A DNA stretch of 13,394 nt, taken from assembly GCA_030637775.1 (NCBI GenBank), contig DAOWFY010000001.1, positions 1 to 13,394 of the forward strand, given 5' to 3'. Both the position numbers and the translations under genes were made by a program. Under the pieces are notes generated by a model. That model did not search any database, was not told where the DNA came from, and was given only the letters and a program-made list of their open reading frames with translations. Source of the stretch: DAOVGU01 sp030637775 [NCBI: bacterium] (GTDB taxonomy: Bacteria; Ratteibacteria; UBA8468). Positions within the stretch are counted from its first letter, which is position 1. Each line of letters starts with the position of its first letter. Positions 7,445 through 12,859 of this stretch are shown here, piece by piece.

Positions 7445-7520
7445 GGTGAGTGTAGCTCAGCTGGTTTAGAGCACTGGACTGTGGCTCCAGTTGTCGCCGG
7501 TTCGAATCCGGTCACTCACC
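7445..7520 (+). tRNA. tRNA-His (anticodon GTG)
   Basis: Acceptor stem GTGAGTG/CACTCAC with the extra G-1 (7445) paired to C73, the identity mark of tRNA-His. D-arm GCTC/GAGC, anticodon arm CTGGA-CTGTGGC-TCCAG, T-arm GCCGG-TTCGAAT-CCGGT. CCA is not encoded. It is the intact counterpart of the broken copy at 6468. Confidence 0.96.
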
Positions 7521-7523
7521 CTT

Positions 7524-7597
<74 letters not shown>

Positions 7598-7609
7598 CAT
7601 TTTCAAAAA

Positions 7610-7682
7610 GCGCCCTTAGCTCAATCGGTAGAGCAGGACACTCTTAATGTCAAGGTTGCAGGTTCGATTCCTGCAGGGCGTA
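7610..7682 (+). tRNA. tRNA-Lys (anticodon CTT)
   Basis: A 73-base cloverleaf. Acceptor GCGCCCT/AGGGCGT with discriminator A; D-arm GCTC/GAGC; anticodon loop CTCTTAA, anticodon CTT; T-arm GCAGG-TTCGATT-CCTGC. The first anticodon-stem pair (27-43) appears to be a G-A mismatch. No encoded CCA. Confidence 0.93.
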
Positions 7683-7704
7683 CTAAAAAGGAGGTGAAGA
7701 GAAT

Positions 7705-7839
7705 ATGGGAGCAAGTGCAGTGGGAGCAGGTTTTACGGTGCTTTTTGGACTTATCTACCTTGGAATTACGGTTTATATGATTTCCCTGGCAATTCGATTT
7801 GTAAAGGCGGTGGAGACAATTGCCGATAAGATGAAGTGA
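7705..7839 (+). CDS. 44-residue single-pass membrane protein inside the tRNA cluster
   Basis: A small gene of unknown function. A near-perfect ribosome binding site (AAGGAGGTGA) sits 7 bases before the ATG, stronger than that of most genes here. The product begins MGASAVGAG, continues with a hydrophobic stretch at residues 10-31 (FTVLFGLIYLGITVYMISLA and IR), and ends in a short amphipathic tail RFVKAVETIADKMK. This predicts one transmembrane helix. It is transcribed with tRNA-Lys before and tRNA-Leu after it (6 bases after its stop). I do not recognise the family. The ribosome site, clean start and stop and protein-like composition argue that it is real. Confidence 0.75.
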   Translation: MGASAVGAGFTVLFGLIYLGITVYMISLAIRFVKAVETIADKMK

Positions 7840-7845
7840 TGTTTT

Positions 7846-7927
7846 GCGGATGTGGCGGAATGGCAGACGCGCTAGACTTAGGATCTAGTCCCTTTTAGGG
7901 GTGGGAGTTCAACTCTCCCCGTCCGCA
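7846..7927 (+). tRNA. tRNA-Leu (anticodon TAG)
   Basis: An 82-base class II tRNA. Acceptor GCGGATG/CGTCCGC with discriminator A; anticodon arm CTAGA-CTTAGGA-TCTAG, anticodon TAG; long variable arm CCCTTTTAGGGG; T-arm containing GTTCAACT. No encoded CCA. Confidence 0.95.
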
Positions 7928-7945
7928 CTGCCTGCCGCAGGCGGT
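7928..7945. repeat. GC-rich palindrome between tRNA-Leu and tRNA-Gly
   Basis: CTGCCTGCCGCAGGCGG can fold as GCCTG/CAGGC around CCG. It is related to the CCTGCCGGCAGGCAGG repeats at 23-38 and 6491-6506. It fills almost the whole gap between the two tRNAs. Confidence 0.5.
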
Positions 7946-7947
7946 AT

Positions 7948-8019
<72 letters not shown>

Positions 8020-8802: not shown

Positions 8803-9948
8803 ATGTTAAGCCGAGAGAGATTGGAGGCAGAAGAGGAAAGGTTCTTAGCATCCTATGGAATGAAAAGCAGGGAAAGCAAAGGAAGAAGATATAAAGAAAA
8901 TGAGCATCCTTACCGCAGTCCTTTTCAAAGGGATCGGGATAGAATCATCCATTCTACAGCCTTTCGCCGGTTGGAGTATAAAACCCAGGTCTTTGTAAAT
9001 CATGAAGGAGACTACTATCGGACCAGATTAACCCATACAATTGAGGTAGCCCAAGTTGCGCGCACCATTGCTCGGGCATTAGGATTGAATGAAGACCTTA
9101 CAGAAGCAATAGCCCTGGCGCACGATTTGGGTCATACCCCTTTTGGCCATGCAGGGGAGGAAACTCTCTCTAAATTGATGAAGGATTCGGGTGGTTTTGA
9201 ACATAATTGCCAGGGGCTACGTGTCGTGGATAAATTGGAGAAGAAATATCAAGAATTTGATGGTCTTAATCTTACTTATGAGGTAAGGGAGGGAATTATC
9301 AAGCATCGTACCCCTTATGATATCCTCACTGAATATCGGGAGTTTGAACCGGATAAATCTCCCACTTTGGAATGCCAGGTGGTAAGTCTGGCCGACGAGA
9401 TTGCCTATACCAGCCATGATCTCGACGATGGTCTTAAAGCGGATCTTCTTAGCGTAAAGGAGCTAAAACAGATAAAACTCTGGTCCTCCATCTATGAGAA
9501 AGCAGCAAAAGAGGTTTCTGAAGAGGAAAAAATAAGGTATGAGACAATCCGCTCCTTAATTAACCTTTTAGTAAATGATCTTATTGTTGAGACGGAGAGA
9601 AGGCTACAACATTTTCAAATTAAATCGGTTGCTGAGGTAAGAGAGAAAGAAAACGCTGTCTCATTTAGCTCTGCTTTGGAAGAAGAATATCGGCTCCTGA
9701 AACAATTTCTTCTGGAGAGGATGTATCGTCATTACCGGGTAATTCGTATGGCAGAAAAGGCCCGCCGGGTGATTGAATCCCTGTTTGAGGTATATACAGA
9801 GGAGTCAAAGCAGCTACCACCTTCAGCCCGTGAGTCTCTGAAGGGGGAAGCAATTTCCCGCATTGTCTGTGACTATATTGCCGGGATGACCGACCGCTTT
9901 GCTCTGGAGGAGTATAAGAAACTCTTTGATCCCTATACAAGGGTCTAG
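8803..9948 (+). CDS. dgt: dGTP triphosphohydrolase-like dNTPase
   Basis: 381 residues. HD-domain enzymes of this family hydrolyse dNTPs to deoxynucleosides and triphosphate and so adjust dNTP pools. Visible motifs are RRLEYKTQVF (55-64), HTIEVAQVAR (78-87, first metal His), AHDLGHTPFGH (106-116, HD pair at 107-108), GGFEHNCQ (130-137) and SLADEIAYTSHDLDDGL (195-211, the distal metal Asp198). The length and the KTQVF motif fit the short bacterial Dgt type rather than the longer E. coli enzyme. It starts one base after the lipoprotein stop and is probably co-translated with it. It is followed by 516 bases without a gene. Confidence 0.93.
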   Translation: MLSRERLEAEEERFLASYGMKSRESKGRRYKENEHPYRSPFQRDRDRIIHSTAFRRLEYKTQVFVNHEGDYYRTRLTHTIEVAQVARTIARALGLNEDLTEAIALAHDLGHTPFGHAGEETLSKLMKDSGGFEHNCQGLRVVDKLEKKYQEFDGLNLTYEVREGIIKHRTPYDILTEYREFEPDKSPTLECQVVSLADEIAYTSHDLDDGLKADLLSVKELKQIKLWSSIYEKAAKEVSEEEKIRYETIRSLINLLVNDLIVETERRLQHFQIKSVAEVREKENAVSFSSALEEEYRLLKQFLLERMYRHYRVIRMAEKARRVIESLFEVYTEESKQLPPSARESLKGEAISRIVCDYIAGMTDRFALEEYKKLFDPYTRV

Positions 9949-10000
9949 GTACGCTCGGAAGTTTCATAGCCAATGGTCAGTTGCTCCGCATCTACGCTAC

Positions 10001-10129
10001 GGCGGATACAAATCTACAGCCAAGAGCAGAGAAAGACACTCCGGAATTCTCTCATCAGAGAATCAAGGAAGTCTTTATCGGTCAGTTTCGGCTTCTTTTC
10101 TCTGCTTGGCTAAGATTTGTCTATCCGCC
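10001..10129. repeat. Long imperfect inverted repeat downstream of dgt
   Basis: The left arm, beginning GGCGGATACAAATC (10001-10036), pairs with the right arm ending GATTTGTCTATCCGCC (about 10095-10129), with a few bulges over roughly 34 bases. An inner hairpin TTCTCT-CATC-AGAGAA lies in the loop. No T-run follows, so it is not a standard terminator, and there is no coding capacity. The bases between the dgt stop and this hairpin (9953-9972) resemble those after the amaP stop. It may be a MITE-like element. Confidence 0.65.
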
Positions 10130-10166
10130 TCCACTTATGATTGCTTCGCAACTACCATTGTCTTTG

Positions 10167-10175
10167 TGATATACT
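10167..10175 (+). promoter_or_regulatory. Extended -10 promoter element
   Basis: TGATATACT: a TATACT hexamer with the upstream TGn of extended -10 promoters. No good -35 is seen. Transcription would start near 10182, at the first bases of the structured segment that precedes dprA. Confidence 0.45.
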
Positions 10176-10176
10176 A

Positions 10177-10461
10177 ATGTGAGGACTATTTCTGGAGGCG
10201 TGCCTTGTTAGCGACTCACGCCCCTCTGTGTCTCCCCAGAGGGGAGAACATAAGAGAAGGACGAGCGAGGGTGTCTGTTGCGATGAATAAAGAGCAACGA
10301 GTTTAGGCACGCCCGCCGAGATGTGAGGCGGGTCGGATAATCGAGCAAATGCTGTGCGAGGAATAACGAGCACGAGATAGCTATTATAGTGCGAGTCGGT
10401 GAGCACCCTGACCGACGAAGCGATAGCTGAGGAGACCCGCTGAAGAAGATAGTCCGAACAT
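10177..10461 (+). ncRNA. Candidate structured RNA upstream of dprA
   Basis: About 285 bases with dense complementarity and no credible gene. The ends pair: ATGT-GA-GGACTAT (10177-10189) with ATAGTCC-GA-ACAT (10449-10461), where the mismatches would be tandem G-A pairs. Inside are GGCGTGCCT/AGGCACGCC (10197-10205 with 10305-10313), CCCCTCT/AGAGGGG (10221-10244), GTTGC/GCAAC (10277-10298), GCGGGTC/GACCCGC (10328-10334 with 10434-10440; an alternative CCCGCC/GGCGGG pairing exists at 10312-10332), AGCTAT/ATAGCT (10379-10384 with 10423-10428) and GTCGGT/ACCGAC (10395-10416). It lacks the landmarks of RNase P, tmRNA, SRP RNA and 6S RNA. It may be a leader of dprA, a separate RNA or a palindromic mobile element; I cannot tell which. 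Confidence 0.5.
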
Positions 10462-10464
10462 ATT

Positions 10465-11562
10465 ATGGATGAAAGAAAGAAGGGCTGGATTGGACTTAAC
10501 CTCATTGATGGCTTAGGATTTATCAGGATACGGAATCTCCTAAAAAAATTCAGAGAGCCTAAAAAAGTCTTTAGTGCATCGGCAGCAGAATTGCTTGAGG
10601 TCCCGGGTATCAACAAAAATATTGCCGAAAGAATCAAGAGTTTCTCCGATGCAGGATTAGAAAAGGAACTGAGTCTCATAGAGGAATTGGGACTTTCCGT
10701 TATTGCCTTAGAGGATAAGGATTATCCTTCCAACCTTAAATTGATTTATGATCCTCCTCCTGTTCTCTATGTCCAGGGAGGGATAGAAGCAAAGGATCGA
10801 TTAGCCATTGCCATTGTGGGAACAAGAAGATGCTCCTACTATGGACGCAAAACTGCCGATTCTCTCAGCTATGAACTTACATCTCGAGGTTTTACCGTTG
10901 TCAGTGGAATGGCTCGAGGGATTGATACTGCAGGTCATAAAGGAGCACTAAAGGCAGGCGGCAGAACCATTGCTGTATTGGGAAGTGGGCTGGCGCGAAT
11001 TTATCCCAGGGAGAATAAGGAGTTGGCTGCGAAAATTGGTAAATCCGGAGCTCTCATTTCAGAATTTCCTCTTCTTACCGCTCCCGACCGACGTAACTTT
11101 CCCCAGCGCAACCGTATTATCAGCGGACTCTCCTTAGGCGTTGTTGTGATCGAGGCCCCAGACAGAAGCGGTGCCCTTATTACCGCAGATCTTGCTCTTG
11201 AGCAGGGAAGGGAGGTTTTTGCTATTCCGGGTAATGTTGACCAACCAACAAGCTCAGGTACCTTACGCCTCATTAAACAAGGGGCAAAATTGGTGACAGA
11301 AAGCGATGATGTGATTGAGGAATTAGGTGCGCTTCTTAATCTTTTGCCAAAGAAGAAGGAAGGAAAAGGAGAAAAGGCGGTTCCTACTTTAAAAGGGGAG
11401 GAGAAAAGAATATACCATTTGCTTACTACCTCCCCCCAGCATATTGACGAAATTATAAAAAGGAGTGAACTTTCTGCATCTACAGCTGCCGGTCTCCTGA
11501 TGACCTTAGAACTAAAAGGGTTGGTAAAGCAACTCCCGGGTAAGTTCTATGTGCTACCTTGA
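10465..11562 (+). CDS. dprA: DNA-processing protein DprA (Smf)
   Basis: 365 residues, full length. DprA binds incoming single-stranded DNA in the cytosol and loads RecA. An N-terminal helix-hairpin-helix/SAM-like part (1-62) contains LLEVPGINKNIAERI. The Rossmann-like DprA domain (about 80-290) contains IVGTRRCSYYGRK (117-129), VVSGMARGIDTAGHKGAL (145-162), ISEFPLLTAPDRRNFPQRNR (198-217) and AIPGNVDQPTSSGT (253-266). A C-terminal winged-helix domain spans about 312-365. No Shine-Dalgarno is visible before the ATG; instead the start codon lies three bases after the terminal stem of the structured segment, so expression might depend on that structure. The stop overlaps the next promoter. Confidence 0.95.
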   Translation: MDERKKGWIGLNLIDGLGFIRIRNLLKKFREPKKVFSASAAELLEVPGINKNIAERIKSFSDAGLEKELSLIEELGLSVIALEDKDYPSNLKLIYDPPPVLYVQGGIEAKDRLAIAIVGTRRCSYYGRKTADSLSYELTSRGFTVVSGMARGIDTAGHKGALKAGGRTIAVLGSGLARIYPRENKELAAKIGKSGALISEFPLLTAPDRRNFPQRNRIISGLSLGVVVIEAPDRSGALITADLALEQGREVFAIPGNVDQPTSSGTLRLIKQGAKLVTESDDVIEELGALLNLLPKKKEGKGEKAVPTLKGEEKRIYHLLTTSPQHIDEIIKRSELSASTAAGLLMTLELKGLVKQLPGKFYVLP

Positions 11563-11609: not shown

Positions 11610-12173
11610 ATGAAAATATTTAGTAGGATTGTAGCCTGGATATATGGCCTTACCTCTTTGATAGTTGCTTTCTTCTGTCTTGCCCTATGGGCAAAGATGC
11701 TTTCCCTTGAACAATTGCAATTGCATCTCGAAAGGATTGATCTTACCACGATAGGTATTATCGGTACTTCATTGATTATCCTGGGGATGCTCTGGCTTCT
11801 ATTTATAGTTGATTATCTTCATAAAAGTCGGGCAATCTCTTTTGACAATCCAGGGGGGGAGGTGAAGGTTGCCCTCTCGGCAATTGAAGATTTTATTGTT
11901 AAACGGGTATTGGCCCAAATCAAGGCGGTAAAGAGGATAACTACAAAGGCTTTCGCTACGGCCAAGGGATTAAAATTGATTAATCGGGTGGTGCTCTGGT
12001 CCGATAATGAAATTCCCGGTACTTGTGGGGCAATCCAGGATCTGATCAAGAAATATCTGCAGGACATTGTAGGGGTTGAGCGAATCTCAGTGATCAAGGT
12101 TTACGTCAGAGGTATATCTACCCACATTGGAGAGGAGGAACCAAAGGAGGAAGAGCCGATAATCTATGAGTAG
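11610..12173 (+). CDS. amaP: Alkaline shock response membrane anchor protein-like (AmaP)
   Basis: 187 residues. Two transmembrane segments at about 7-29 and 45-67 form a hairpin, followed by an Asp23-like cytoplasmic domain (about 79-170) with VKVALSAIEDFIVKRVLAQI and a late conserved strand IKVYVRG. This matches AmaP, which in Firmicutes anchors Asp23 to the membrane; similar genes occur singly in Gram-negative candidate phyla, where the role is not established. The tail (173-187) is acidic. A good ribosome binding site (GAGGAG) precedes the ATG and a promoter lies just upstream. No separate asp23 gene is nearby. A palindromic element begins a few bases after the stop. Confidence 0.75.
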   Translation: MKIFSRIVAWIYGLTSLIVAFFCLALWAKMLSLEQLQLHLERIDLTTIGIIGTSLIILGMLWLLFIVDYLHKSRAISFDNPGGEVKVALSAIEDFIVKRVLAQIKAVKRITTKAFATAKGLKLINRVVLWSDNEIPGTCGAIQDLIKKYLQDIVGVERISVIKVYVRGISTHIGEEEPKEEEPIIYE

Positions 12174-12177
12174 GCTC

Positions 12178-12277
12178 GGAAAGTTTCTTAGGCGGCACGC
12201 TCGCAGAGATGCTCGCTATGGACTCCTCCTCTGCTCGGGCATTCATACGGGGTCTAATGCCGCTACAGAAACTTTCC
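12178..12277. mobile_element. 100-bp MITE-like palindromic element
   Basis: It begins GGAAAGTTTCT and ends AGAAACTTTCC, a perfect 11-bp terminal inverted repeat. GCGGCA (12192-12197) and TGCCGC (12258-12263) extend the stem, and GCAGAG/CTCTGC form an inner hairpin. It has no coding capacity and fills the gap between amaP and gmhA, leaving gmhA with a weak ribosome binding site. Confidence 0.65.
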
Positions 12278-12295
12278 TCACCTTAGTAGAAGAAA

Positions 12296-12859
12296 ATGAA
12301 AAAAACAAGAATTGTTGCATTAATCAAGGAAAGCGTTAAGGTAAAGGAAGGGCTTCTTTCGCCAAAAAATATAAAGGCAATCGAAAAAATCTCTCGAGAG
12401 GTAGTAAAAACACTGAAGCAAGGAGGAAAGATTCTCTTCTGCGGTAATGGAGGAAGTGCCGCAGATTCCCAGCATTTAGCGGCTGAATTTGTGGGAAGGT
12501 TCAAGAGAGAAAGAAGACCGATTCCAGCTCTTTCCCTCACTACCAACAGCTCTATCTTAACCGCCATCTCCAATGACTATGATTTTAAAAATGTTTTTAG
12601 CCGTCAGGTTCAAGCCATGGGGAAAAAGGGTGATCTCCTTATCGGAATTTCCACCTCCGGGCAGGCAGAAAATGTTATTTTAGCGGTGAAGGTAGCAAAG
12701 AAAATTGGAATAAAAACAATAGGGCTCACCGGGAAAAATGGAGGAGGTCTCGCAAAACTTTCCGATCTTTCGTTTATCGTCCCTTCCAATAATACCGCCC
12801 GTATCCAGGAAGCTCATATCTTGATTGGCCATATTCTCGCCGAAATCGCCGAAAGATGA
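12296..12859 (+). CDS. gmhA: D-sedoheptulose 7-phosphate isomerase
   Basis: 187 residues, a single SIS domain of usual GmhA size. It converts sedoheptulose 7-phosphate to D-glycero-D-manno-heptose 7-phosphate, the first step of ADP-heptose synthesis for LPS inner core. The phosphate-binding segment FCGNGGSAADSQHLAAEFVG lies at 48-67 and contains Glu64, matching the catalytic Glu of E. coli GmhA. ISTSGQAENV (118-127) is the SIS serine-rich motif. QEAHILIGH (171-179) places the catalytic His at 179. It is upstream of rfaE2, a later step of the same pathway, with only a repeat between. The ribosome binding site before the ATG is weak. Confidence 0.93.
   Translation: MKKTRIVALIKESVKVKEGLLSPKNIKAIEKISREVVKTLKQGGKILFCGNGGSAADSQHLAAEFVGRFKRERRPIPALSLTTNSSILTAISNDYDFKNVFSRQVQAMGKKGDLLIGISTSGQAENVILAVKVAKKIGIKTIGLTGKNGGGLAKLSDLSFIVPSNNTARIQEAHILIGHILAEIAER

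What the first reader, a model, noticed from the sequence alone, without database searches (positions are those of the whole stretch)
10177..10461. Undescribed-looking structured RNA or palindromic element directly upstream of dprA
Seen: about 285 bases with at least seven nested perfect stems, closed by an end-to-end helix (GGACTAT/ATAGTCC, continued by ATGT/ACAT across two G-A/A-G positions that would make tandem sheared pairs). An extended -10 element lies so that RNA would begin at the closing helix. The helix ends 3 bases before the dprA ATG, which has no Shine-Dalgarno. Inference: a regulatory leader, a free RNA, or a large palindromic mobile element. It lacks the landmarks of RNase P, tmRNA, SRP and 6S RNA. 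A pairing switch at 10312-10334 (CCCGCC/GGCGGG against GCGGGTC/GACCCGC) hints at two states.
Basis: partly seen in the sequence, partly recalled or inferred. Interest (0 to 1): 0.72.

Follow-up and report, generated by a model that had tools for sequence, protein, structure and literature searches.

The report
Nested hairpin element before dprA
The folded stretch in front of dprA is one copy of an apparently undescribed family of hairpin-rich, insertion-like elements that sit exactly at gene ends and gene starts, with relatives behind tRNA genes, so it looks like a mobile element that became a leader rather than a control device made for dprA.

Summary
In detail: the 285-base fold is far more stable than shuffles and its closing helix ends 3 bases before the dprA ATG. 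No Rfam family reaches its threshold there. It is not specific to dprA. A covariance model of the family finds 38 places at E<=0.001 in this 1.4 Mb genome and many in three relatives, with strong compensatory change (17 of 43 pairs, 0 of 500 shuffles). Relatives have the same gene junctions without it, dgt-dprA included. Of 83 copies, 25 end at the start codon of the downstream gene (ATG 7-8 bases after CCGA in 24) and 39, in the other orientation, at the upstream gene's stop codon. One inner module recurs across the class, in elements behind tRNA genes whose closing arm is the complement of that tRNA's own T-arm. Best reading: a new family of mosaic, non-autonomous, hairpin-built insertion elements, here forming the leader of dprA. 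The promoter and the two-state switch are not supported. Mobilising enzyme, transcript and effect on dprA are unknown.

The parts
10177..10461 (+). R-type element, long copy, from closing helix to closing helix; ends 3 bases before the dprA ATG
10177..10189 (+). 5' arm of the closing helix: ATGT, GA, GGACTAT
   Evidence: the same helix in 14 copies has 6 of 10 pairs changed on both sides (helix 2)
10449..10461 (+). 3' arm of the closing helix: ATAGTCC, GA, ACAT
10211..10257 (+). module B hairpin, also found apart from the element elsewhere in the genome (query 42-88)
10267..10337 (+). module C, two hairpins with GA/GA steps, shared across the class (query 98-168)
10342..10437 (+). module D (query 173-268)
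10453..10467 (+). R end TCCGAACATATTATG, which runs up to and includes the start codon
9954..10160 (-). second palindromic element, opposite orientation, filling the rest of the gap back to the upstream gene; closing stem 9972-9984 with 10148-10160
12166..12289 (-). another member of the family (R1 match, E 7e-12) between the gene 11610-12173 and the SIS-domain (gmhA-like) gene at 12296
8803..9948 (+). upstream gene: HD-domain phosphohydrolase (dgt-like)
10465..11562 (+). dprA

Best explanation
The feature is one long copy of a lineage-specific family of mosaic, non-autonomous insertion elements built from hairpins. Shown: the family is dispersed in high copy; its fold is kept by compensatory changes; GA/GA steps recur in its stems; copies are present or absent at the same gene junction in relatives; they abut stop and start codons; copies differ by whole hairpin modules held inside an outer helix. 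Inferred: this element, head to head with a second one (9954-10461), entered the tight dgt-dprA junction of this lineage as a folded single strand handled by an enzyme not yet identified, grew as further hairpins landed in its loops, and is now the leader of dprA. Its R end supplies the bases up to the start codon, so dprA starts right behind a stable helix without a Shine-Dalgarno. Any effect on DprA output would be a consequence of the insertion, not its origin.
For: Dispersed family: 57 blastn matches to parts of the query in the own genome; R1 finds 38 places at E<=0.001 and 38, 16 and 15 at E<=0.01 in G001, G002, G003. Fold: 17 of 43 pairs changed on both sides, 0 of 500 shuffles as high on any of five measures; G-U cells 68 against A-C cells 7. 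Insertion: 14 of 21 comparable junctions have at least one relative with a short element-free junction (my reading); dgt-dprA is empty in G001. Boundary rule: 25 of 83 at a sense start, 39 of 83 at an antisense stop; 22 of 22 exact R ends open a reading frame. Modules: 62-nt minimal form, about 150-nt core, longer forms.
Against: No mobilising enzyme found: Y1 transposases are in 15 of 26 genomes with R2 matches and in 8 of 9 without; reverse transcriptases in 3 of 35. No consistent target-site duplication: L143 fits a repeat of ATGA, L159 shows none. No movement was observed. 19 of 83 copies end at neither boundary by the script. Some junctions in relatives hold other repeats instead of an empty site (L142, L148, L158, L165).
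Confidence: 0.8

Rival explanations
1. Domesticated mobile leader: R-type elements are kept because they work as a portable translation-start or mRNA-stability module shared by many genes, a dispersed post-transcriptional network. This would come on top of an origin by insertion.
For: The end ACATATTATG is nearly constant and its ATG lies 7-8 bases after CCGA in 24 of 25 copies. The downstream genes include essential ones such as rplF, ftsZ, murA and lpxA (names by eye), so the leader must allow expression. Some sites (L090, L096) keep only the last bases without the rest.
Against: No functional coherence among the genes that I could see. Orthologs without the element exist. R1 was trained on copies with this end, which favours the count. 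No expression data.
Confidence: 0.2
2. A riboswitch-like or other regulatory leader evolved for dprA or competence.
For: Stable fold directly before the ATG without Shine-Dalgarno.
Against: The family stands before many unrelated genes and in both orientations. Same-genus dprA lacks it. The alternative pairing is not seen in other copies.
Confidence: 0.04
3. A free small RNA transcribed from its own promoter.
For: Strand-specific structure with G-U pairs; a TGA-TATACT box by eye at 10167-10175.
Against: No promoter-like pair and no terminator-like site in 9900-10520; the box is not kept in other copies; no Rfam match at threshold.
Confidence: 0.05
4. Old intercistronic repeats shuffled by recombination and deletion, with no transposition-like step in this lineage.
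For: Several junctions are shared between G000 and relatives (L142, L150, L151, L153, L154); remnants occur (L090, L096).
Against: Clean element-free junctions with overlapping or nearly touching genes in relatives (L138, L141, L157, L159). Shared near-constant ends at unrelated genes need copying from place to place.
Confidence: 0.1

Closest known systems
BOX elements of Streptococcus pneumoniae (PMC3049150; passages read)
   Same: Modular (boxA-boxB-boxC with boxB varying in number), stable fold if transcribed, no coding capacity, dispersed between genes, insertion of repeats into one another, expected to affect co-transcribed genes.
   Different: Here modules sit nested inside an outer helix, GA/GA steps recur, ends abut stop and start codons, and a relative carries an arm complementary to a tRNA. 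The passages report terminal inverted repeats and target duplications for BOX; I could not establish a duplication here.
REP, BIME and REPIN palindromes (PMC3733652; abstract and outline read)
   Same: High-copy extragenic palindromes, often paired in opposite orientation, often right behind coding regions.
   Different: REPs are 20-40 bp with an unpaired GTAG or CGTC tag. Copies here are 62 to about 285 nt, I saw no constant tag, and the REP transposase does not follow them across genomes.
MITEs and other small mobile sequences of bacteria (PMC2229807; abstract and outline read)
   Same: Short, non-coding, ends complementary, found between and at the edges of genes.
   Different: The terminal arm sequence changes while pairing is kept, unlike terminal repeats read by a transposase as sequence.
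E. coli tyrT tandem repeats / rtT RNA (recalled; no call retrieved a description, searches found none)
   Same: As recalled, tandem units behind a tRNA gene, each holding a copy of the tRNA 3' end; this resembles the tRNA-linked relatives here.
   Different: cmscan of ten related loci at E<=0.5 listed no rtT match. The arm complementary to the T-arm and the GA hairpins are, as far as I recall, not described there.

Membership tests
REP (GTAG/CGTC palindromes) | 20-40 bp palindrome with an unpaired GTAG or CGTC tag at one end | tested here: not met
   Smallest copy met is 62 nt; no constant GTAG/CGTC beside the closing helix in the 14 aligned copies (by eye)
REP (GTAG/CGTC palindromes) | association with Y1 (RAYT) transposase | tested here: not met
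   R2 matches: 15 of 26 genomes with Y1; without R2 matches: 8 of 9 with Y1. The two own RAYT loci read have other flanking repeats
MITE | terminal inverted repeats | tested here: inconclusive
   Ends pair, but with variable sequence and a conserved GA/GA mismatch
MITE | target-site duplication | tested here: inconclusive
   Junctions read by eye: L143 fits ATGA, L159 shows none; in tRNA-linked relatives 30 of 34 tRNA genes have a further copy of their 3' end
MITE | presence/absence at orthologous sites | tested here: met
   14 of 21 comparable junctions with an element-free relative (by eye)
BOX-like mosaic element | modular make-up with optional inner modules | tested here: met
BOX element proper | boxA, boxB, boxC sequences | not tested
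   no BOX model was run
rtT RNA (Rfam RF00391, number recalled) | match to the Rfam model | tested here: not met
   not listed for the window nor for ten related loci
Riboswitch or cis-regulatory leader | tied to one gene or pathway | tested here: not met
   24 other R-type copies stand before diverse genes
Riboswitch or cis-regulatory leader | signal-dependent change of expression | not testable with these tools
   needs RNA or reporter experiments

The most novel reading that the evidence does not exclude
A new class of selfish folded nucleic acid whose closing stem is written from its target. Behind tRNA genes each copy carries an arm, usually 10-15 nt, that is the exact complement of that tRNA's own T-arm region, followed by a copy of the tRNA 3' end, often in tandem units. 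In operons the same kind of element ends at the start codon and so delivers a ready-made leader without Shine-Dalgarno. Such elements would enter and grow by pairing: hairpins landing in the loops of hairpins, with the arm copied from, or selected to match, the target.
Probability: 0.25. Interest if true: 0.85.

Novelty: new variant of a known kind. Interest (0 to 1): 0.62.

Why it matters
Small interspersed bacterial repeats are usually short hairpins or relics of transposons. In this family pairing rather than sequence is kept, modules nest, and the ends stop at gene boundaries to within a few bases, including the start codons of genes that are normally essential and the 3' ends of many tRNAs. 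It offers a testable case of how repeated insertions rewrite leaders and operon junctions, and an arm that matches its target, whose origin no mechanism known to me explains.

Tried and rejected
Rfam: the window to E 1, 10100-10520 to E 10 and ten related loci to E 0.5 gave, over the element, only sub-threshold hits (best whalefall-1, 17.4 bits, gathering 37). Y1/RAYT as mover: no positive association. Reverse transcriptase as mover: 3 of 35 genomes. Carriage elsewhere: a module C pattern in viral contigs, 0; window element in plasmids, no match; one tRNA-linked element in phages, no match. Promoter and terminator scan: 0 and 0. Naming the organism: a scan of named genomes for the R end gave 9 stretches, 7 in MAG CSMAG_1143, which is probably G001 because contig lengths agree (for example 48119, 13679, 8858, 8184), and 2 that I read as chance matches. 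Papers: the listings showed nothing describing such elements; the library is open-access only and the terms were few, so this is no proof of absence from print.

Considered and rejected: assembly artefact (copies lie in many separate genomes); chance palindrome.

Results against the reading, and biases: R1 was trained on copies that include the start-codon end, so leans towards it. Without asking for ATG, 36 distinct TCCGARYAT sites in the held loci of the family had ATG close behind in 26 by script and 4 more by eye. For one search, 15 of the 97 matches were dropped first (duplicates or cut at a locus end) and the window copy was added by hand; itself covered 100 chosen loci. In one search unrelated tRNAs often share TTCAAATCCC, so 236 of 1020 mismatched pairs also reach 10 nt. 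In one search one of five measures (further pair types) was not above the shuffles, and on A2 the G-U to A-C ratio is only 11 to 5. The 14 of 21 is my reading; 5 of 26 copies gave no comparable junction.

Full report
What is there. Its closing helix pairs 10177-10189 with 10449-10461 around a GA/GA step and ends 3 bases before the ATG. The fold has -112.6 kcal/mol, z -6.15. Pyrimidine-GA-purine occurs 17 times on the plus strand and once on the minus; 6 of 500 shuffles reach 17 on the plus strand. The rest of the gap back to the upstream HD-domain gene (8803-9948) is a second palindromic element in the opposite orientation, 9954-10160.

It is a repeat family. The own genome gives 57 blastn matches at E<=10, mostly to parts of the query: both ends and inner stretches that I call modules B, C and D. 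Fourteen core copies from G000, G001 and G002 were aligned (A1) and modelled (R1). R1 finds 46 places in the own genome at E<=1, 38 of them at E<=0.001. In a run over 61 genomes at E<=0.01, 7 have matches: own 33, G001 38, G002 16, G003 15, and 2 each in G004, G008 and G013. The window copy scores only E 0.08, because modules replace much of the core.

The fold is kept. On A1 96.3% of cells pair against 86.3% when shuffled; 17 of 43 pairs have a change on both sides; 0 of 500 shuffles are as high on any of the five measures; slid versions fall to 37-49% paired. The closing helix varies (GGACTAT/ATAGTCC, GGAAGTTTCC/GGAAACTTCC and others) while staying paired. G-U cells outnumber A-C cells 68 to 7, though some G-U columns never vary.

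Presence and absence. At dgt-dprA, the same-genus genome G001 has the stop codon, two bases and GTG; G002 has two head-to-head elements; G003 has another, short palindrome pair. The 3' flanks of 25 own copies were sought in G001-G003 and both flanks of 26 copies compared with the loci then held. 21 gave a comparable junction, and by my reading 14 of these have at least one relative with a short, element-free junction. In other cases relatives share the element or hold a different repeat.

Placement. Of 83 distinct copies in the four genomes of the family, 25 have their 3' end at a sense start codon, with the ATG 7 bases after CCGA in 21, 8 in 3 and 4 in 1. 39 have it at an antisense stop codon of the neighbouring upstream gene, within 7 bases in 37. 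19 have neither by the script. The exact end TCCGARYATAYTATG occurs 22 times in G000-G002, 0 times in the other four genomes searched, with 0 for the reversed control. All 22 open a reading frame, one of them only 40 codons long before the end of the held locus. By eye the genes include rplF, gcvPA, hypA, ftsZ, murA, lpxA, lpxB, ligA, pheT, pilT, nusB, exbD and dprA. Element-free relatives of dprA, L144, L148 and L161 do not show CATATT before the start codon, so the element appears to bring at least those bases.

Nesting. A 62-nt form has only the closing stems (L168:1434-1495). The roughly 150-nt core, forms with module C, and the 285-nt window form hold more hairpins inside an outer helix. 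A bare hairpin at L146 corresponds to the closing stem of the window element at 9954-10160, which has about 160 bases in its loop. Growth rather than loss is inferred.

Relatives behind tRNA genes. Module C recurs in the class. A model of seven elements, most of them tRNA-linked (A2, R2), shows 15 of 48 pairs changed on both sides; four of five measures exceed all shuffles and one, further pair types, does not. R2 matches 26 of 35 genomes of the class. In a wider run with stricter filters it matches 25 of these 35 and 1 of 111 genomes outside the class. I fetched 20 regions, chosen partly for adjacent hits. Of 37 distinct tRNA genes in the loci examined, 33 have an element start motif within 160 bases downstream. 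In 31 of the 33, 10 or more bases within 75 nt downstream are the exact complement of the same tRNA's 3' part, mean 11.0 against 7.2 for mismatched tRNA pairs. Of 34 tRNA genes, two of them without an element, 30 have at least one further copy of their T-stem 3' strand within 700 nt, and 7 have two or more. The closing helix there is element arm against copied tRNA end.

Mechanism. I take the element to be handled as a folded single strand, because pairing stays while arm sequence drifts. DNA or RNA, and the enzyme, are open; Y1 transposases and reverse transcriptases do not follow the element. For dprA the expected consequence, inferred only, is loss of coupling to dgt and a start codon directly behind a stable stem without Shine-Dalgarno.

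Known or new. No Rfam family at threshold. It works like mosaic intergenic repeats such as BOX or BIME, fails two tests for REP, and is undecided as a MITE. The paper searches named above listed no such family, within an open-access library.

Noticed in passing
L272-L291, L042, L052, L057, L061, L064, L065 (other genomes of the class): Elements behind tRNA genes, often in tandem units, each with an arm complementary to the T-arm of its own tRNA and followed by a copy of the tRNA 3' end.
   Followed up: partly
L012, directly upstream of dprA (G003 dgt-dprA junction): A different short palindrome pair with GTAG/CTAC next to the stems, looking like a REPIN, sits where the window has its element.
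   Followed up: no
L136 and L137 (own genome): Two Y1 (RAYT-type) transposase genes flanked by their own repeat containing GGTCAGGTCTCAACATTTGAC or GGGGTCAGACCTC, unlike the element's ends.
   Followed up: partly
L272:103-277 (G030): A 6S RNA gene (66.9 bits) directly upstream of tRNA-Tyr and its threefold element array.
   Followed up: no
L045, L059, L043, L060, L044, L046, L062 (f3 genomes): Module C sits inside CCCTCACC..GGGTGAGGG-type palindromes next to CCTCTCCCC hairpins, another carrier for the same module.
   Followed up: no
window 7446-8019: A cluster of five tRNA genes; R1 over the whole own genome listed no match there.
   Followed up: no
L153, end of the upstream gene: The reading frame of the upstream gene runs into the element, so the element seems to supply the last codons, while G002 has a normal stop there.
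   Followed up: no
L085 (own genome), before a gene whose protein starts MNKIDLKTYWHSTAHILA (threonyl-tRNA synthetase-like): A related 5' end is followed by a different interior, with GGAGCAACTGAGCATTGGCTATGAA as in the window's 9954-10160 element.
   Followed up: no
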